Positions 36,942 to 44,801 of a DNA stretch of 64,000 bases are shown here, in pieces (position 1 is the first letter of the stretch; the number at the start of each line of letters is the position of its first letter). This stretch comes from a bacterium. GTDB lineage: Bacteria; JAJRZV01. The stretch is from positions 1-64,000 of the forward strand of contig JAJRZV010000047.1 of assembly GCA_024275095.1 (NCBI GenBank). The letters are read 5' to 3'. Both the position numbers and the translations under genes were made by a program. The notes beneath the pieces were generated by a model. It was not told where the DNA came from, made no database searches, and saw only the letters and a list, made by a program, of their open reading frames with translations.

Positions 36942-38561
36942 ATGAAATACCCACGAGACCATAAAAACACTGAAAATACTCTCAAAATTAAATGGTACCA
37001 GAGTATCAGTTTTAAGCTTACATTTGTGGTGGGTTTTGTTGTTACGTGCATATTTGGCTTCTTCATGTACGTGGTTATGAAAACCAGCCAGGATTCCCTT
37101 TTGCGCGAACTTCTCAGAAGTGCCACCCAGCTCAGCGAAACGGTCAGAAGGAGTACTCATTACGATATGCTCGAAAATCGTCGCGAAAACATATATCGCA
37201 TTATACGTACCATTGCTTCGCAGAAAGGGATAGAAAAAATCCGCATTTTCAATAAAGAAGGTCGCATCATGTTTTCTACTGCTGAAGAAGAAGCAGGAAA
37301 GATGGTGGATAAAAAAGCCGAGGAATGCTATGCGTGCCATGCACGTGAGCGACCACTTGAAAGGCTGGACATTAAAAAACGAAGTCGAATATTCCGCTGG
37401 GGTGAAGATAAGCACCGCGTATTCGGAATGATTACCCCCATATACAACGAAGAAAGTTGCTATACTGCTGCATGCCATTATCATCCACCCGAACAGAAAA
37501 TTCTTGGGGTACTGGATATCGTTATCTCCCTGAAAGATGTGGATCAACGTCGCGAAGCCATGCTCAAGCGATTTCTCATCACAGCCGCTCTGGCCATCCT
37601 CTCGACATGCCTGCTCATTATCGTATTTATGCAGAAAGCCCTCATCACCCCTGTGCGAAAATTAGTGGAAGGAACAGAAAAAATCGCTGAGGGCAAACTA
37701 GAGCACCGAATCGACGTGGATACCGAGGACGAAATTGGAATACTTGCGAGGTCCTTCAACGTGATGGCTGAAAACCTGAAAAAAGCGGAAGAGGAGATTC
37801 AGGAATGGATAAGAACGCTGGAAGAAAAAGTTAAGAGAAGAACCCGGGAGCTGGAAGCCACGCAAAAGCAGCTCATCCAGTCTGAAAAAATGGTGTCCCT
37901 GGGCAAACTTGCAGCCACCGTTGCGCACGAAATCAACAACCCATTAACAGGAGTGCTCACCTACCTCAGGCTTATTTCCAGGAAACTTTCAGAATCAGAA
38001 GGAGAAATGAAAAAAGAAGATCTGCTCAGGTACCTCTGGATCATAGAAGCTGAAATTAAAAGAGCTTCTGTCATAGTAAAAGAGCTCCTTGATTTCGCCC
38101 GCCAGAGAGAACCCATACTGAAAGAGGTGGACATCAACAAGGTCCTGGAGGGGGCACTTTCCATTCTTTCCAACGAGGTCGCTCTGAGAAACATTACAGT
38201 AAAAAAATACCTGTCCAGGGTGCCCATCATCAAAGCCGATCCCAATCAGCTCAAACAGGTGTTTATCAACATTGTTATGAATGCCTGCGAAGCCATAAAA
38301 GAAAAGGGTGAGATTACCATTACAACACGGTATGATGAAAATGCAGGAGAGGTGGAAATTCAAGTTACAGATACAGGGATCGGTATTCCCGAAGAAAATC
38401 TTTCGCGCATATTTGATCCGTTTTTTACAACCAAAGAAAAAGGTACTGGTTTAGGATTGTCGGTGGCGTACAATATTATCACGAATCACAAAGGCAAAAT
38501 CCAAATCACAAGCAAAGAAGGAGAAGGCACCACTGTAACTATTCGACTCCCTGTATCATAA
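36942..38561 (+). CDS. Sensor histidine kinase with periplasmic heme-c motifs
   Basis: About 539 residues from ATG 36942; the frame is open upstream, but that part is not protein-like. Order: membrane segment (~24-46), periplasmic domain with a CYACH heme-c motif (residues 129-133) and a CYTAACH motif of CX4CH form (173-179), membrane segment (~211-231), HAMP (~232-284), coiled coil (~285-315), HisKA with the phosphoacceptor His in VAHEINNP (~329), and a catalytic ATPase domain (NIVMNACEA, DTGIGIPEE, GTGLGLSV). Covalently bound heme outside the membrane implies sensing of redox, a gas or electron flow. It heads a three-gene operon with the archaemetzincin and the sigma-54 regulator. Confidence 0.88.
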   Translation: MKYPRDHKNTENTLKIKWYQSISFKLTFVVGFVVTCIFGFFMYVVMKTSQDSLLRELLRSATQLSETVRRSTHYDMLENRRENIYRIIRTIASQKGIEKIRIFNKEGRIMFSTAEEEAGKMVDKKAEECYACHARERPLERLDIKKRSRIFRWGEDKHRVFGMITPIYNEESCYTAACHYHPPEQKILGVLDIVISLKDVDQRREAMLKRFLITAALAILSTCLLIIVFMQKALITPVRKLVEGTEKIAEGKLEHRIDVDTEDEIGILARSFNVMAENLKKAEEEIQEWIRTLEEKVKRRTRELEATQKQLIQSEKMVSLGKLAATVAHEINNPLTGVLTYLRLISRKLSESEGEMKKEDLLRYLWIIEAEIKRASVIVKELLDFARQREPILKEVDINKVLEGALSILSNEVALRNITVKKYLSRVPIIKADPNQLKQVFINIVMNACEAIKEKGEITITTRYDENAGEVEIQVTDTGIGIPEENLSRIFDPFFTTKEKGTGLGLSVAYNIITNHKGKIQITSKEGEGTTVTIRLPVS

Positions 38562-38571
38562 CCTGTTTTGG

Positions 38572-39123
38572 ATGAAAAGAATTCACATCATCCCTGTTGG
38601 GAAAACGAATGTTTCCATGCTCGAGAGGATATCGAAAAAAGTGGAACATTTGTTAAATGTACCCTCCGAGGTATTGAAACCTGTAAGTGTGCCCAAAGAA
38701 GCTTACGACTACGTGCGAAAGCAATATAACTCCACCGTAATTCTTAAAAACCTGCTGGAAAAGGTAACCCCTGACTCTCTCAAAGTTATCGGTATTACTC
38801 ATGTTGATCTTTTCATCCCTGTTCTAACTTTTGTATTTGGAGAAGCCCAGTTGGGAGGACAGGTAGCCGTGGTATCCACTGCCCGTTTAAGGCAAGAATT
38901 TTACGGACTTCCAGCGGATGAATTTGTACTGGAAGAGAGGCTCTACAAAGAAGTCATCCATGAACTGGGACACACTTTCGGACTTGTACACTGTTCGCTC
39001 AACAAATGCGCTATGTATCTTTCCACCAGCATAAAATTCATTGACCTCAAAAGCAGTGGCTTCTGCAGGGAGTGCCAGAAACAGTTGAACAAAAGCCTCC
39101 AATTGCTTAAAACAGACAGGTAG
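38572..39123 (+). CDS. Archaemetzincin-type zinc metalloprotease
   Basis: A 183-residue protein with the archaemetzincin signature: HELGHTFGLVHC, then CAMYLS and FCRECQ, i.e. HExxHxxGxxHCx4CxM followed by CxxC. Three His ligate the catalytic zinc and four Cys form a second structural zinc site. ALRQEFYG-type residues (TARLRQEFYG) precede it, as in the family. No signal peptide, so it is cytoplasmic. Bacterial members are uncommon and their substrates are unknown. It starts 10 bases after the kinase stop and ends two bases before the regulator start, so it is part of the two-component operon; proteolysis of a regulator is a tempting but unproven role. Confidence 0.88.
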   Translation: MKRIHIIPVGKTNVSMLERISKKVEHLLNVPSEVLKPVSVPKEAYDYVRKQYNSTVILKNLLEKVTPDSLKVIGITHVDLFIPVLTFVFGEAQLGGQVAVVSTARLRQEFYGLPADEFVLEERLYKEVIHELGHTFGLVHCSLNKCAMYLSTSIKFIDLKSSGFCRECQKQLNKSLQLLKTDR

Positions 39124-39125
39124 CC

Positions 39126-40490
39126 ATGAATAGTAAAGTTAAAGTACTCATTGTAGACGACGAGCAGGTGGTGAGAGATTCTCTCTCCGAATGGCTCCGA
39201 GAGGACGGTTATGAAGTGGGAGCTGTAGAAAGTGGCAAAAAAGCTCTTGAAGAACTGGGCAAAAGCAACTGGGACATACTTCTGGTAGACCTCAAGATGC
39301 CGGAAATGGACGGTCTGGAACTTCTCCAGAAAGTAAAGGAAATTTCTCCTTCCATACCCGTCATCATTATCACCGCATACGCCACAGTGGACACTGCCGT
39401 TAAAGCCATGAAAGAAGGTGCATATGACTATCTTGTAAAACCTTTCGATCCGGAAGAAATTTCCCTCCTCATGAAAAGACTCACAGAGCACATTAAACTG
39501 ACCCGCGAAAATATTTACCTTCGACAGCAGCTGAAGAAACAATACACGCTTCACGACATTATCAGCAGAAATCCCAAAATGCAGGAACTGATGGAACTGG
39601 TCAAAATGGTGGGACCAACAGATTCAACCGTGCTTCTTCAGGGCGAAAGCGGCACCGGCAAGGAACTGTTCGCCCGCGCACTCCACAAAGAAAGTCTCAG
39701 AGCAGACAAGCCCTTTATCGCGGTCTCCTGCGGTGCGCTCAGTGACAGCCTGTTAGAGTCGGAACTCTTTGGCTACGAAAAAGGGGCATTTACAGGTGCT
39801 ACATCTCGCAGAAAAGGGAAATTCGAACTCGCCAATGGAGGAACTATTTTTCTCGATGAAATAGGAGACATAAGTCCAAAACTCCAGCTTGACCTTTTAA
39901 GAGTACTTGAACAGAAAGAGTTCTACCGGATTGGCGGCTCAGAAGTCATCAAAATAGATGTCCGGGTCATCGCCGCCACGAACAGAGATCTCGAAAAAAT
40001 GGTGAGAGAAGGACAATTCAGGGAAGACCTTTTCTACAGGCTCAACGTTGTCCCCATTCACATCCCTCCTCTCCGGGAGAGAAAAGAAGACATACCCCTT
40101 CTGGTTGACCACTTTCTCGAAATTTTCAGGTTGGAAACAGGCAAAAACATAGAGCGTGTAAGTGAAGATGCCATGAAGGTGCTGCTCGATTACGACTACC
40201 CAGGAAATGTTAGAGAGTTGAGAAACATCATAGAAAGAGCCGTTATTGTGGCAAAAGGTGACGAAATTACTGTTGAAGACCTTCGCTTCGGGCTCAAATC
40301 ACCGCCTGCACCTTCGACGGAAGCGGAAGATGAAGCGCTTGAATCGGTAGAACGAGCTCATATATTGAAAGTGCTTAATAAATATGACTGGAACGTAAGT
40401 AAGGCCGCATCCGCTTTAGGAATTGACCGCACCACCCTTTACAACAAAATGAAAAAATACGGCCTTACGCGCCGGGGGAACGACGCGTAA
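39126..40490 (+). CDS. NtrC-family sigma-54-dependent response regulator
   Basis: A 454-residue activator. The receiver domain (residues 5-118) has the acidic pocket (VDDE), phosphorylated Asp in LLVDLKMPEMDG and conserved Lys in LVKPF. The AAA+ domain (~145-375) has Walker A GESGTGKE, the sigma-54-contacting loop GAFTGA, Walker B GGTIFLDEIGD and the arginine finger region FREDLFYRLNV. A Fis-type helix-turn-helix ends the protein (NVSKAASALGIDRTTLYNKM). Phosphorylated by the upstream kinase, it should activate sigma-54 promoters. The best candidate is at 44786-44801, in front of the convergent GcvH/HybAB operon. Confidence 0.93.
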   Translation: MNSKVKVLIVDDEQVVRDSLSEWLREDGYEVGAVESGKKALEELGKSNWDILLVDLKMPEMDGLELLQKVKEISPSIPVIIITAYATVDTAVKAMKEGAYDYLVKPFDPEEISLLMKRLTEHIKLTRENIYLRQQLKKQYTLHDIISRNPKMQELMELVKMVGPTDSTVLLQGESGTGKELFARALHKESLRADKPFIAVSCGALSDSLLESELFGYEKGAFTGATSRRKGKFELANGGTIFLDEIGDISPKLQLDLLRVLEQKEFYRIGGSEVIKIDVRVIAATNRDLEKMVREGQFREDLFYRLNVVPIHIPPLRERKEDIPLLVDHFLEIFRLETGKNIERVSEDAMKVLLDYDYPGNVRELRNIIERAVIVAKGDEITVEDLRFGLKSPPAPSTEAEDEALESVERAHILKVLNKYDWNVSKAASALGIDRTTLYNKMKKYGLTRRGNDA

Positions 40491-40515: not shown

Positions 40516-41220
40516 TCAGGAGGTAAGGAAGAACCTCCTTGTGATCTCGTCCCAACGATCCGGATCAAGGGCACGTGCCAATCCCTTTACAGGTAAACCG
40601 CCGTCCTGATACACAAGACCAAGATCCTGTCCCGTAAGCCTGCGAAGTTCATCTGTAGAATGTTCTATCCACTTTTTCACCACATGGCCTTTTAATAAAT
40701 TCCTGAGTGCAGAAGGTCTTGAGAGCTTCACCTTTAGAAGCCAACCCTTTTCGTAAGGGTCCTGTTCCATGGTCTCGGGGGAAGTGAGCACGTCATTGTT
40801 AACACCTACAACCTCACCGTCCACAGGAGAAAGCATATCTATCTTTTTTGAATCTACAACAAGAGCCCATCCTTTCTCTCCCTGTTCAAGCCTTGTACCT
40901 TCACGTGGTAAATCCAGTGAATTGACTTTACCAACGAGCTTTTGAGCAAAATCGTCAAGACCCACCTGAACCACGTCTCCCGAGAGTACTTTGACCCAGG
41001 TATGTCCGGGATGGAAATAATAGGGCGCTTCTGGAGGTGGGACGCGGAACCACTCCACAATGTCATAAAGCCAACCGTGGGAGACCTCTGCTTCAGCCTC
41101 TACAGCGGGAGTGGTCAGGTAAGACCAAAAGGCAACCAGCAAAAGGAGGAAACCTATTACCAGAAGATATTCAACGCCTTTTGTTGCGTATATGTCTATC
41201 ATGGCCAGCGTCTCCATCAT
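40516..41220 (-). CDS. Membrane-anchored GcvH-fold protein (3)
   Basis: A 234-residue protein. One N-terminal membrane segment (~17-36, LLVIGFLLLLVAFW) is followed by a ~45-residue linker and then a GcvH-like lipoyl domain (YYFHPGHTWVKV ... VQVGLDDFAQKLVGKV ... SPVDGEVVGVNNDVL ... DPYEKGWLLKVKL). Lys is present in the DSKKIDMLSP turn, with one residue fewer than in canonical GcvH. After the lipoyl domain comes a module shared with the two other copies (WIEHSTDELRRLTG, then QDGG and DPDRWDEITRRFF). Last gene of the operon; its ATG overlaps the NrfD gene's stop. It cannot be part of a normal glycine cleavage system, which is soluble. Confidence 0.85.
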   Translation of the reverse strand: MMETLAMIDIYATKGVEYLLVIGFLLLLVAFWSYLTTPAVEAEAEVSHGWLYDIVEWFRVPPPEAPYYFHPGHTWVKVLSGDVVQVGLDDFAQKLVGKVNSLDLPREGTRLEQGEKGWALVVDSKKIDMLSPVDGEVVGVNNDVLTSPETMEQDPYEKGWLLKVKLSRPSALRNLLKGHVVKKWIEHSTDELRRLTGQDLGLVYQDGGLPVKGLARALDPDRWDEITRRFFLTS

Positions 41221-42461
41221 GCCACCTCCTTTTTCATCTGGACTACATTATCCTCTTCCTCCCAGCCCTTGTGTTCGGTCAACACAGGCATTCTGTTCAC
41301 CACCCACCTGAAAGCCCACATTTCTGCACAAATAACTGCCAGTGTAATCACTATTTCCATCCAGGAAGGCACGTACCTGTTGGCAGCGTCCCATTTAAAA
41401 GCGATGATAGAAACGTTCAATCTGTTGAGAAGCACACCAACAACCGTAAAGAAGGCAACAGTTTGAATCAACTTCACATTGCGAGTTCTTACACCGTAAG
41501 TGAAAAGCAGACACGGTATTACAACAAAGCCTATGAGTTCCACCAGATACCAGTGCCCCATCGAGGTGTTCAGCAGGTGCCAGTGATTACCGTGAGCAAT
41601 ACTTATGATTTTTAATGTGAAGTAGAGAAACAGTGTACCTGCAGCAGCTTTTCCGAGTCCCACTACAATATCATCAAAGGAGGCATGGTGCTCCGGGTCC
41701 ACCTGAAACACTTTATGCGAGATGGAACTTTCCACAATGACCATGGAAAGTCCTCCAAAAATGCTGGACACAAAGAAAAGAACCGGAAGATTGGTATACC
41801 AGAGAGGATGAACTTTTGTGGGAGCCATGAGGAATAAAGCCCCAAGAGCCGACTGGTGCAACGTGGACAACGTGATCCCAAAAATCACCGCTCCCACCGT
41901 AAGTCCTCCAACGATCTGTCGAATTCTTTTCCACCCGAGCCATTCGGTAATAGCAGGACTGAATTCCACAAATTCACAAATGGTGTAGAGAAAAAAATGC
42001 CACGCGATGAGAAATAACACCGAACTGAGTCCAAAGGAGTTACCAATCAGAGGATTAATGACGTGCCATGGGCGGCCAAGATCCAGTAAAAGGGCACCAC
42101 CATAAAAGCAATACCCCAGAAACCCTGTAAGAACCGCCGGTCTTACGATTGGATGGTATTTTTCAAGTCCCAGTATATACACCATAAAAGGAATTACATA
42201 TCCACCAGCAGCAATAGCCACACCCCCCATTACGTCGAACCCGATCCATATCCCCCATGGAAAATCCTGTGACAGGTTGGTGGTAGCGCCCAGGCCTTTT
42301 ACAAATCGAATCACAATAAGTACGCCACCAGCGAGGATAATTGCTCCGGTGATGACATTAAAAGGAGTGAGTATCTTCCCCTTTGGTTTCAACTCGCTAA
42401 TGATGAACCTGACAAAGTTTCCGACTTCGGACATGAGATTTTTCCTTTCGGCAGTGTTCAT
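41217..42461 (-). CDS. HybB/NrfD-family quinone-interacting membrane subunit
   Basis: A 414-residue protein with about ten membrane segments. The opening KGLGATTNLSQDFPWGIWIGFDVMGG and VRPAVLTGFLGYCFYGGALLLDLGRPWH are diagnostic of the HybB branch of the NrfD/PsrC family, which passes electrons between the quinone pool and an extracytoplasmic Fe-S subunit. No hydrogenase or molybdoenzyme catalytic subunit occurs in the operon. GGAGGGG precedes ATG 42461. It lies 13 bases after the HybA-like gene and overlaps the last GcvH-like gene. Confidence 0.9.
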   Translation of the reverse strand: MNTAERKNLMSEVGNFVRFIISELKPKGKILTPFNVITGAIILAGGVLIVIRFVKGLGATTNLSQDFPWGIWIGFDVMGGVAIAAGGYVIPFMVYILGLEKYHPIVRPAVLTGFLGYCFYGGALLLDLGRPWHVINPLIGNSFGLSSVLFLIAWHFFLYTICEFVEFSPAITEWLGWKRIRQIVGGLTVGAVIFGITLSTLHQSALGALFLMAPTKVHPLWYTNLPVLFFVSSIFGGLSMVIVESSISHKVFQVDPEHHASFDDIVVGLGKAAAGTLFLYFTLKIISIAHGNHWHLLNTSMGHWYLVELIGFVVIPCLLFTYGVRTRNVKLIQTVAFFTVVGVLLNRLNVSIIAFKWDAANRYVPSWMEIVITLAVICAEMWAFRWVVNRMPVLTEHKGWEEEDNVVQMKKEVA

Positions 42462-42474
42462 TTTGTCCCCTCCT

Positions 42475-43353
42475 TCATTTAGCTTTTTTCACTTCTTCTT
42501 TTTTCACCTCTTCCCTGCGAGCATGGCTGATGCCCAGCAGAAAAGCAGGCCATATAAGAAGGACAAGAGAAACCCCGTAAAGGAATTCCTTTGTCAGTTC
42601 AGGATATGGTCTTGTGCCTACATTCGTGGGGAATCCAAGCTGTTCGAAGGGGACAGCAGCAAGGTACAACCATCCGGTGCCACCAACTTCGTGTTCGCCA
42701 TAAACATGATGGACGTATTTATCAGGATTGTTATAAATACGCCTCTTTGCTTCTTCAAGAAGTTCACCCCTTTTACCAAAGACGATCGCTTCCTCAGGAC
42801 ATGCCTCCACGCACGCCGGCTGTTCTCCTTTCTCCAGCCTTTCGTAACACATGATGCATTTGCGGATGCGGGGGTTAGGGCTGTCGTATTCAAACTTCGG
42901 AATATCGAAAGGACACGAAATCATACAATAACGACAGCCCATGCATTTATTCCCCCGCCAGATCACAGGACCTTCTGGTGTTTTATACATGGCCTTAACC
43001 AGACACGCCGATGCACAGGCAGGTTGATTACAGTGCATGCACTGTTTCTTCGCGTATACCGTGCCCTTTTCTGTTTCATACCGATTTACCACGGTCCAGT
43101 GGTTCGGGTCAGTTTTACGATGCCTCTCGAACACAGATTCATCATCAATATCAGGCACCGGAAGACCGTGAGCTTCTGCACACGCCTCTTCACAACTTCG
43201 ACAACCAATGCACCGTGTGGTATCCACCAGTACAGAAGCCATTTCATTGAACACATCCTGGGCTGACTTCAAAGTACCGGCAGATGCAAGACCCCCGGTA
43301 AGGAGGGCTCCACCTGAAATCGCCGCAGTTTTGAGGAAGTCTCTTCGTCTCAT
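42475..43353 (-). CDS. HybA-like periplasmic four-cluster ferredoxin with Tat signal
   Basis: A 292-residue protein. The twin-arginine signal RRRDFLKTAA is followed by four cysteine clusters typical of the 16-Cys HybA/DmsB/NrfC ferredoxins: CIGCRSCEEAC, CMHCNQPACASAC, CMGCRYCMISC and CIMCYERL...CVEAC. The C-terminal hydrophobic segment (~258-278, GVSLVLLIWPAFLLGI) anchors it. It would carry electrons on the outer face of the inner membrane to or from the HybB-like subunit. A strong ribosome site (AGGAGGTAAAC) precedes ATG 43353. The partner catalytic subunit is not encoded here. Confidence 0.92.
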   Translation of the reverse strand: MRRRDFLKTAAISGGALLTGGLASAGTLKSAQDVFNEMASVLVDTTRCIGCRSCEEACAEAHGLPVPDIDDESVFERHRKTDPNHWTVVNRYETEKGTVYAKKQCMHCNQPACASACLVKAMYKTPEGPVIWRGNKCMGCRYCMISCPFDIPKFEYDSPNPRIRKCIMCYERLEKGEQPACVEACPEEAIVFGKRGELLEEAKRRIYNNPDKYVHHVYGEHEVGGTGWLYLAAVPFEQLGFPTNVGTRPYPELTKEFLYGVSLVLLIWPAFLLGISHARREEVKKEEVKKAK

Positions 43354-43370
43354 TTCCGTTTACCTCCTTA

Positions 43371-43994
43371 TCAGGCTTTCTCTAAAAACTCTTTCACAAT
43401 TGCCTGCCAGTGCTCTTTGTCTATTTTCTCGGAAAGTCCTTTAGGCACCTCTCCTCCATCTGCTACAGTCACTCCAACTTCGGCGCTGAGGAAGTGATGG
43501 AGTCGATCTGATTCTCTCAACAGCCACTCTTTCGCCTTTTCACCGGAATAGAGGTCTTTCAAACCTCTCTTTTGTACCTTCATTTTGAGTATCCACCCTT
43601 CGCCGTAAGGGTCTTCTGAAACCACTTCCGGACGATGCAAGACAGTGGAGTTCACCTCCACTACCGTTCCATCAATGGGCCCAGGAACATTTACTTCTCC
43701 AGCATGGGCAGCGATCCTTATTGACGGCTTCCCTCTTCTCACCTCTCTTTTGGGCGGAATTATCTCGCGAATGCGTCCAATAAGACGGACAGCAAAATCA
43801 TCCAGACCGACCCTTGCAACCTCCTTCTCTTCAGGCTGAATCCACGTATGTACTGGTGAATAGAACCGGTCACCCGCAAAAACGAAACCGTGAACCTTCT
43901 CTATCCCCTCTGTTTTCACCCGCTGGCTCAACATCTGAGCCACCGCTATGGCACCCATAACCACGAAAATCAAAAAAATCGCCACGTAACCCAT
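43371..43994 (-). CDS. Membrane-anchored GcvH-fold protein (2), lipoyl lysine lost
   Basis: About 207 residues. One N-terminal membrane segment (GYVAIFLIFVVMGAIAVA), then a GcvH-like domain (YSPVHTWIQPEEKEVARVGLDDFAVRLIG ... GPIDGTVVEVNSTVL ... DPYGEGWILKMKV) and the shared C-terminal module (WLLRESDRLHHFLSAEVG, VADGGEVPKGL, EHWQAIVKEFL). At the lipoylation turn the sequence is HAGEVNVPGP, with Gly where copies 1 and 3 have Lys, so this copy cannot be lipoylated there. ATG 43994 is preferred (AAGGAGG eight bases upstream) over the overlapping GTG at 44003. Probably structural. Confidence 0.83.
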   Translation of the reverse strand: MGYVAIFLIFVVMGAIAVAQMLSQRVKTEGIEKVHGFVFAGDRFYSPVHTWIQPEEKEVARVGLDDFAVRLIGRIREIIPPKREVRRGKPSIRIAAHAGEVNVPGPIDGTVVEVNSTVLHRPEVVSEDPYGEGWILKMKVQKRGLKDLYSGEKAKEWLLRESDRLHHFLSAEVGVTVADGGEVPKGLSEKIDKEHWQAIVKEFLEKA

Positions 43995-43999
43995 AACGT

Positions 44000-44758
44000 T
44001 CACCTCCTTTTCCTTTTTTTAAAAAAGCTTCTTGCCACCATCCCCCATTCCACCTGGTCGAGCTGCTTGTGCAAGCCAGGCATAATCTCTCCCCCGTCAG
44101 CAACAACCACGCCCAGTCTTTCCTCGAGAATTCTGTGCAGCTTATCAACTTCCTTTTCTATCCAATTTTTCACGCTCTCTCCGTGCAAGAGATTTTCGAG
44201 TGCATTTTGATCTTCAGGTTCTATCTCGCAGATCCAGCCCTCGAGATAGGGATCTCTCGTGAGGAGGCCGGGGTCTGCCTTTAAAGACTCATTTATTCCC
44301 ACGACTGTACCGCTTACCGGGGAAAGCAGGCGTACTGATTTATCCCCGCACTTCACTTCACAAAGCACCTCCCCCTCTTTAACGAGACTTCCAGGCTCCG
44401 GGAGTTGAAGAGAAGAGACTCCATCCAGCAATCTGCTCCCAAAATGATCAAGTCCCACTGACACGCGATTACGACCAGGCTTTACCCACAGGTGAGCAGG
44501 GTGATAGTAGAGATTCTTCATGAAGTAATAACCTCTTACCTTCTCGAGAAATGGCCTTATGAGAGACTCCCTGTAAAACGGACACAAATGATACTCACCG
44601 GACGTGCACAGCGAAGGCTCCTTTTCAATGGACTCCAGGGGAATGGGTTTGCGCGTGGGAGCTTCACGACAGAATCCCACTGTTACAATCTCCAGGTGAG
44701 GACACTTGCCTCTTGTTTTCCTTTTTCGAGACTTTTTGAGGGTTACCTTTTTTCTCAT
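44000..44758 (-). CDS. GcvH-fold protein (1) with N-terminal four-cysteine region
   Basis: About 252 residues from ATG 44758 (GGAGG seven bases upstream). A very basic start (KKVTLKKSRKRKTRGK) leads into CPHLEIVTVGFC and LCTSGEYHLC, four cysteines spaced as a likely Zn or Fe-S site. Then comes the GcvH-like domain (YYHPAHLWVKPGRNRVSVGL ... SPVSGTVVGINESLK ... DPYLEGWICEIEP) and the shared C-terminal module (WIEKEVDKLHRILEE, VADGGEIMPGL). A Lys lies in GDKSVRLLSP at the same register as copy 3. No membrane segment, so it is presumably cytoplasmic. First gene of the operon, behind the sigma-54 promoter. The frame upstream to 44827 contains the promoter and is not translated. Confidence 0.83.
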   Translation of the reverse strand: MRKKVTLKKSRKRKTRGKCPHLEIVTVGFCREAPTRKPIPLESIEKEPSLCTSGEYHLCPFYRESLIRPFLEKVRGYYFMKNLYYHPAHLWVKPGRNRVSVGLDHFGSRLLDGVSSLQLPEPGSLVKEGEVLCEVKCGDKSVRLLSPVSGTVVGINESLKADPGLLTRDPYLEGWICEIEPEDQNALENLLHGESVKNWIEKEVDKLHRILEERLGVVVADGGEIMPGLHKQLDQVEWGMVARSFFKKRKRR

Positions 44759-44785: not shown

Positions 44786-44801
44786 AGCAAATGCCATGCC
44801 A
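44786..44801 (-). promoter_or_regulatory. Sigma-54 (-24/-12) promoter of the GcvH/HybAB operon
   Basis: On the minus strand the sequence is TGGCATG-GCAT-TTGCT, matching the sigma-54 consensus TGGCACG-N4-TTGCW at all but one position, with the invariant GG and GC exactly ten bases apart. The predicted start point (~44775) leaves a leader of about 17 bases that holds GGAGG before ATG 44758. An NtrC-type regulator is encoded in the adjacent operon. Confidence 0.8.

What the first reader, a model, noticed from the sequence alone, without database searches (positions are those of the whole stretch)
40516..44758. Operon of three GcvH-fold proteins around a HybA/HybB membrane module without hydrogenase
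Seen: five tightly packed genes encode GcvH-like (Cys-rich, soluble), GcvH-like (membrane anchor, Lys lost), Tat-exported 16-Cys ferredoxin, HybB-type quinone subunit, GcvH-like (membrane anchor, Lys kept). All three GcvH copies share an extra C-terminal module (W-x~6-L..., DGG, W-x2-I-x2-FF) that glycine-cleavage GcvH lacks. No glycine decarboxylase, lipoate ligase, hydrogenase or molybdoenzyme is in the window. Known: GcvH-fold lipoate proteins act as carriers in sHdr sulfur oxidation. Inference: a membrane redox complex in which lipoyl-like arms or scaffolds deliver electrons or sulfur/methyl groups to quinone. I know of no characterised system with this composition.
Basis: partly seen in the sequence, partly recalled or inferred. 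Interest (0 to 1): 0.85.

Follow-up and report, generated by a model that had tools for sequence, protein, structure and literature searches.

The report
Lipoate-less GcvH proteins on redox complexes
A bacterial gene cluster pairs a membrane quinone enzyme with three relatives of the glycine-cleavage H protein that have lost the site for its lipoate cofactor; a dedicated sensor-activator-protease cassette lies beside it, and the same pattern recurs in about ten bacterial groups with no description found in the papers searched.

Summary
The five genes are real and lie where stated. Three encode GcvH-fold proteins with an extra C-terminal module ("GcvHx", my label); the other two are closest to HmcB/HmcC, not HybA/HybB. 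The key inference fails: the lipoyl lysine is absent from all three copies and from 110 of 111 family members, against 1 of 14 ordinary GcvH. GcvHx is a separate, old paralogue family. Its TM-anchored members are predicted to face the cytoplasm, and each occupies a fixed slot. The five-gene order is identical in six other genomes and near-identical in four more.

A consensus sigma54 promoter sits just upstream of gene 1. The cassette and GcvHx go together in 14 of 14 cassette genomes among 290 surveyed. In other lineages GcvHx is paired with NuoF/NuoG-like, Nfn-like or HdrA-like modules instead of HmcBC.

Most likely this is a sigma54-induced, menaquinone-linked HmcBC complex exchanging electrons with periplasmic cytochromes, with GcvHx as non-lipoylated cytoplasmic-face adaptor subunits. 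Electron route and adaptor role are inferred, not shown. The protease's role is unknown.

The parts
44000..44758 (-). H1: soluble GcvHx, 252 aa, with a Cys-rich N-terminal motif (C-x2-LE...C...C...C-P-x-Y); real start ATG 44758 behind GGAGG
   Evidence: AF2 model of the GcvH core confident, Cys segment not
44786..44801 (-). Sigma54 -24/-12 promoter TGGCATGGCATTTGCT, 28 nt upstream of the H1 start
   Evidence: fits TGGCAYRNNNNTTGCW exactly
43371..44003 (-). H2: GcvHx with N-terminal TM anchor, 210 aa (GTG start overlapping the H1 stop); divergent, its class is not resolved
42475..43353 (-). B: HmcB-like ferredoxin subunit, Tat leader (MRRRDFLK), 16 Cys (four [4Fe-4S] clusters predicted), C-terminal TM
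41217..42461 (-). C: HmcC/NrfD-family quinone subunit, 10-TM type, N- and C-termini predicted cytoplasmic; only copy in the genome
40516..41220 (-). H3: GcvHx with N-terminal TM anchor, 234 aa; slot directly downstream of HmcC
36942..38561 (+). K: histidine kinase, 2 TM with CxxCH (AEECYACH) in the sensor domain, HAMP, HisKA, HATPase; listed ORF begins TTG 36780, ATG at 36942 fits the length of relatives
38572..39123 (+). M: archaemetzincin (peptidase M54) with the HExxHxxGxxHC motif
39126..40490 (+). R: NtrC-type response regulator (receiver, sigma54 AAA, Fis HTH), convergent with the H-B-C operon

Best explanation
The five genes encode a menaquinone-linked membrane oxidoreductase of the HmcBC kind in which proteins of the GcvH fold have become dedicated, non-lipoylated subunits. 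HmcB (periplasmic, four Fe-S clusters) exchanges electrons with periplasmic c-type cytochromes; HmcC passes them to or from menaquinone and takes up protons from the cytoplasm. H2 and H3 are anchored by one helix each, with the GcvH domain on the cytoplasmic face next to HmcC, and soluble H1 with its Cys4 motif docks there. GcvHx works as an adaptor or scaffold domain and carries no lipoate. The operon is switched on through sigma54 by the adjacent R, driven by K, whose sensor carries a c-haem-type motif; M is a regulatory or maturation protease of unknown target. Shown by sequence: gene content, loss of the lipoyl Lys, subunit slots, the cassette and the promoter. Predicted: fold and topology. 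Inferred: electron route, the adaptor role, R acting on this promoter, the role of M.
For: Fold: H3 model pLDDT 89; Foldseek best hits are GcvH structures (1onl, E 1.3e-12, TM of target 0.89). Lys lost: 1/111 against 13/14. Separate family: branch against GcvH SH-aLRT 99; H3 clade 95 across phyla; 14 changes of positional class against 62 in shuffles. Fixed slots: H1-H2-B-C-H3 order in L052-L055, L057, L058 and H2-B-C-H3-H1 in L041, L051, L061, L148. Topology: K/R after the TM exceed those before in 44 of 50. Domain fusion of GcvHx with a NuoG-like Fe-S module next to a NuoF-like gene. HmcC-type residues invariant: D76, Y117, D127, Y159, E166, E173, with spacing like the QrcD quinone-site and proton-path residues of PMC6303296. 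Cassette K/R/M with GcvHx: 14/14 cassette genomes against 8/276 others. Sigma54 site in 30/86 GcvHx operon starts against 2/514 other genes. CxxCH sensor in 26/27 kinases at HmcBC loci, 0/21 elsewhere. The genome has many multihaem-cytochrome matches.
Against: No biochemical evidence for a complex; direct GcvHx-HmcC contact is not shown and complexes could not be folded here. In many Desulfobacterales GcvHx is alone behind its sigma54 promoter beside the cassette, with no clear redox partner in cis, which fits a regulatory role as well. About half of the B proteins lack a Tat leader, so the periplasmic side is not universal. The sigma54 consensus is strict in the window and Desulfobacterales but weak or absent at many other HmcBC loci. 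The cytochrome partner of the window's complex is not linked to it.
Confidence: 0.5

Rival explanations
1. GcvHx is a signalling part: K, R, M and GcvHx form one sensory module in which GcvHx reports the state of the redox partner to the kinase or activator, and M removes it.
For: K/R/M with GcvHx is the most constant association, found also where HmcBC is missing and GcvHx is the only cis target. The Cys4 motifs of soluble GcvHx could sense redox or metal.
Against: GcvHx lies behind the sigma54 promoter, that is, as output of the system. H2 and H3 are part of the HmcBC operon with slot-specific clades, and GcvHx is fused to a NuoG-like redox module.
Confidence: 0.22
2. One reading: lipoyl arms on GcvH-like proteins carry electrons, sulfur or methyl groups to the quinone module, as LbpA does in sHdr.
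For: GcvH fold confirmed; LbpA precedent with Hdr-like enzymes (PMC6067878); some GcvHx neighbours are HdrA-like.
Against: Lipoyl Lys absent in all three copies and in 110/111 members; the Glu of the E-S-V-K motif is also replaced. The Lys at +1 in H1 and H3 is not conserved in orthologues.
Confidence: 0.03
3. HmcBC is simply the membrane arm of the NiFe hydrogenase encoded on another contig (Hyb-like H2 uptake), the GcvHx proteins being accessory.
For: The genome has one strong NiFe large-subunit match (C7) with no HybA/HybB-like genes beside it, and one HmcC only.
Against: The operon is not linked to a hydrogenase in any locus inspected and has its own regulator. This would explain the electron source, not GcvHx.
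Confidence: 0.12
4. GcvHx binds another ligand or carries another modification at or near the lipoyl hairpin.
For: The core fold residues are retained (H73, W75, G87, P132) and the hairpin turn is often G/N-rich.
Against: No residue at the hairpin tip is invariant.
Confidence: 0.08

Closest known systems
Hmc complex HmcB/HmcC (and HybA/HybB, QrcC/QrcD) of the NrfD/PsrC family
   Same: Periplasmic 4x[4Fe-4S] subunit plus 10-TM quinone subunit; best NCBIfam matches NF045715 and NF045714; conserved residues spaced like the QrcD quinone-site and proton-path residues (PMC6303296)
   Different: Scores below the HmcB/HmcC equivalog cut-offs; no HmcA, D, E or F-like gene in the operon; three GcvHx subunits instead; own sigma54/haem-type sensor/M54 cassette
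LbpA of the sHdr sulfur-oxidation system
   Same: GcvH-fold paralogues encoded with redox complexes, in one to three copies; Cys features added
   Different: LbpA keeps the lipoyl Lys in all 95 aligned proteins and has dedicated lipoate ligases (PMC6067878); GcvHx has lost the Lys and has TM anchors, a DGG C-terminal module and a different gene context
Glycine cleavage GcvH (TIGR00527 / PF01597)
   Same: Core fold and HxW, LP..G, PxxG, dPYxxGW signatures
   Different: Below the gcvH equivalog cut-off, no Lys, extra C-terminal module, not with gcvT/gcvP; branch SH-aLRT 99 apart
Archaemetzincin (peptidase M54)
   Same: Full motif HExxHxxGxxHCx4CxM...CxxC in 44 of 46 cassette copies; consensus from PMC3427221
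   Different: Here tied to a two-component system and GcvHx; most other bacterial M54 genes sampled stand elsewhere. Biological role unknown in the literature found

Membership tests
Glycine cleavage H protein / lipoyl carrier | GcvH fold | tested here: met
Glycine cleavage H protein / lipoyl carrier | Lipoyl Lys at the hairpin | tested here: not met
   Asp (H1) and Ser (H3) at the site; H2 has no Lys there; 1/111 in the family, 13/14 in ordinary GcvH
Glycine cleavage H protein / lipoyl carrier | Encoded with gcvT/gcvP | tested here: not met
   Not in the window or in the loci inspected; the genome's own GcvP is on another contig
LbpA (sHdr) | Conserved Lys and linkage to sHdr genes | tested here: not met
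   HdrA-like neighbours occur only in some Desulfobacterales loci
HmcBC-type quinone oxidoreductase | HmcB-like 16-Cys subunit with Tat leader | tested here: met
   (358 bits against NF045715, curated cut-off 420)
HmcBC-type quinone oxidoreductase | HmcC-like 10-TM subunit with the quinone-site and proton-path residues | tested here: met
   (441 bits against NF045714, cut-off 550); residue match judged by spacing, not by a structural alignment
Complete Hmc complex (HmcABCDEF) | HmcA 16-haem cytochrome and HmcD-F in the operon | tested here: not met
   The operon contains only H1, H2, B, C, H3
Hyb-type hydrogenase module | HybO/HybC catalytic subunits beside A and B | tested here: not met
   None in the window; the hydrogenase is on another contig
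Archaemetzincin | HExxHxxGxxHC Zn motif and downstream Cys | tested here: met
Sigma54-dependent regulon | -24/-12 promoter and adjacent activator | tested here: met
   transcription itself not testable
GcvHx as complex subunit | Physical association with HmcBC | not testable with these tools
   Needs co-purification

The most novel reading that the evidence does not exclude
GcvHx is a previously unrecognised family in which the GcvH fold, stripped of its lipoate site, serves as a general adaptor subunit plugged into different oxidoreductases (HmcBC, NuoFG-like, Nfn-like, HdrA-like), always under one dedicated sigma54 / redox-sensor / archaemetzincin control cassette.
Probability: 0.4. Interest if true: 0.85.

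Novelty: new variant of a known kind. Interest (0 to 1): 0.72.

Why it matters
It would show a universal carrier fold recast as a non-carrier subunit of respiratory complexes. It also ties bacterial archaemetzincins, proteases whose biological importance is little known (PMC3427221), to a concrete regulated redox operon, which makes their role testable. And it separates a widespread set of proteins that score as GcvH from real glycine-cleavage components in anaerobe genomes. No paper describing the association was found in nine searches of the held library.

Tried and rejected
Lipoyl carrier reading: rejected on the alignment. Recent local duplication of one GcvH: not supported for H3 and H1, which group with slot-orthologues from other phyla; H2 of the window is divergent and unresolved. 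Glycine-cleavage operon: no linkage. Two HmcC orientations to explain B with and without Tat: rejected, since K/R distribution puts HmcC the same way round in both types. PDB sequence search for HmcC gave nothing useful. The AF2 model of H1 left the Cys-rich N-terminus at pLDDT about 50, so its metal site could not be judged. Pfam named no domain for the Cys motifs. Literature searches found no description of the cluster.
Full report
OBSERVATION. Five minus-strand genes run from 44758 to 40516. Products: H1 (252 aa from ATG 44758; the listed 275-aa ORF begins at a GTG upstream), H2 (210), B (292), C (414), H3 (234). H1, H2 and H3 pass the Pfam GCV_H cut-off at 81, 73 and 87 bits against 22, but lie below the NCBIfam gcvH equivalog cut-off of 116. 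B is closest to HmcB (358 bits; HybA 247) and C to HmcC (441; HybB-type 257), all below those models' own cut-offs.

LIPOYL SITE. Aligned to the same profile, ordinary GcvH from this and other genomes have Lys eight residues before the invariant Pro in 13 of 14. The one exception is a second short GcvH-like gene of this same genome. In the extended family (GcvHx) the position is Lys in 1 of 111; Gly, Asn, Ser and Asp dominate. H1 reads EVKCGDKSVRLLSP (Asp at the site), H3 LVVDSKKIDMLSP (Ser at the site). The nearby Lys is shifted by one and is not kept in orthologues.

FOLD AND FAMILY. AlphaFold2 of H3 with 47 relatives gives pLDDT 89, and Foldseek returns GcvH structures first (1onl E 1.3e-12, TM of target 0.89). 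The extension is a long helix, a DGG loop and a terminal helix. In a tree of 103 rows GcvHx and GcvH are split by a branch with SH-aLRT 99. H3-type proteins (TM-anchored, downstream of HmcC) form a clade at 95 that spans phyla. Positional classes need 14 changes against 62 in shuffles. The tree was a quick search without bootstrap, and H2 of the window is not placed well.

GENE ORDER. A scan of GTDB genomes gave 54 loci from Deltaproteobacteria, Gemmatimonadota, Nitrospirae, Eisenbacteria, Planctomycetota, KSB1, Zixibacteria, WOR-3, Ignavibacteria and Terriglobia. The window's order (soluble, TM, B, C, H3) recurs in L052-L055, L057 and L058; TM, B, C, H3, soluble recurs in L041, L051, L061 and L148. 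H3 directly behind HmcC goes with a Tat leader on B (16 of 19; without Tat 1 of 16, and that B reading frame looks broken; Fisher p 4e-6).

TOPOLOGY AND CHEMISTRY. In 44 of 50 TM-bearing GcvHx, K/R residues are more numerous after the TM, which puts the GcvH domain in the cytoplasm by the positive-inside rule. The window's own H3 is one of the few without that signal; its orthologues have it. HmcC has K/R-rich N- and C-tails in both locus types. Invariant D76, Y117, D127, Y159, E166 and E173 show spacing (41, 10; 7, 7) like the QrcD residues D70, Y110, D120, Y150, E157 and E164, proposed for quinone binding and for proton uptake from the cytoplasm in PMC6303296 (spacing 40, 10; 7, 7). This is a spacing match, not an aligned structure.

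REGULATORY CASSETTE. On the + strand, converging on the operon, lie K (2-TM histidine kinase with AEECYACH in its sensor), M (archaemetzincin) and R (NtrC-type sigma54 activator). In a survey of 290 diverse genomes, by my own tally of the tables, all 14 genomes with a K-R-M cassette also hold GcvHx, against 8 of the other 276 (p 1e-18). Most other bacterial M54 genes sampled stand apart from such cassettes. Of 43 GcvHx loci with full flanks, 33 have both K and R nearby, 28 have M, and 24 have all three. The kinase sensor has CxxCH in 26 of 27 cases at HmcBC loci and in 0 of 21 elsewhere.

PROMOTER. TGGCATGGCATTTGCT at 44801-44786 (-) matches the sigma54 consensus exactly and precedes a GGAGG site and the H1 ATG. 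By itself it could be chance: a scan with two mismatches gives 55 hits against 59 expected. Across loci, however, the strict site lies at 30 of 86 GcvHx operon starts and at 2 of 514 other genes, and 30 of 36 strict sites in all loci precede a GcvHx gene. Most of these are in Desulfobacterales; several HmcBC loci have weaker sites and some have none.

EXCHANGEABLE PARTNERS. In Zixibacteria and similar loci GcvHx is fused to a NuoG-like Fer2/Fer4 module beside a NuoF-like gene. In Desulfobacterales it is soluble, usually with two Cys4 motifs, follows K-R-M, and is next to a 1345-1383-aa HdrA/GltD-like flavoprotein, CCG proteins, an Nfn-like pair, or in some loci an MTHFR gene; in others it has no clear partner. 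Nearly all the named partners are electron-transfer modules.

INTERPRETATION. The best reading is an induced menaquinone-linked HmcBC complex with GcvHx as cytoplasmic-face adaptors (confidence 0.5). The main rival is a signalling role for GcvHx (0.22). The genome has a NiFe hydrogenase without its own membrane subunits and many multihaem-cytochrome matches, so H2 could be one electron source; this stays untested. The role of the protease and the chemistry of the Cys4 motif remain open.

Noticed in passing
L038, L044, L045, L046, L063, L095, L100, L104, L124, L126: B proteins of about half of the HmcBC-GcvHx loci lack any Tat leader and start directly at the first cluster motif, although HmcC keeps the same predicted orientation; several of these loci carry 4- to 10-haem cytochromes.
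   Followed up: partly
L069, L078, L084: Near GcvHx in Desulfobacterales, an MTHFR-like gene (Pfam MTHFR in L078), a 77-aa FAD piece and a 1345-aa HdrA/GltD-like 43-Cys protein follow a second divergent sigma54 activator; two of these (L069, L078) have a strict sigma54 site in front.
   Followed up: partly
L002 / L050 (G000:C108:7351-7707): The same genome has another short GcvH-like protein without the lipoyl Lys (EVETGEEVFELVAPVTG), on a contig that also carries multihaem cytochromes.
   Followed up: no
window:24492-25760 (+): Octahaem-type cytochrome c (PF13447) about 12 kb from the cassette; a possible electron partner, not linked by operon.
   Followed up: no
soluble GcvHx in L064-L094: Tandem Cys4 motif C-x-W-M-x-A-G-V-V-x-Y-K-L-C...C-x2-C without a Pfam name, in two copies in most Desulfobacterales proteins and one copy in other groups.
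   Followed up: partly
L156 (G000:C7): NiFe hydrogenase large subunit with maturation-type genes but no HybA/HybB-like genes nearby.
   Followed up: partly
window:45696-50718 (-): DUF1302 / LolA-like / 950-aa 13-TM protein cluster (probably an RND-type exporter) next to the operon, apparently unrelated.
   Followed up: no
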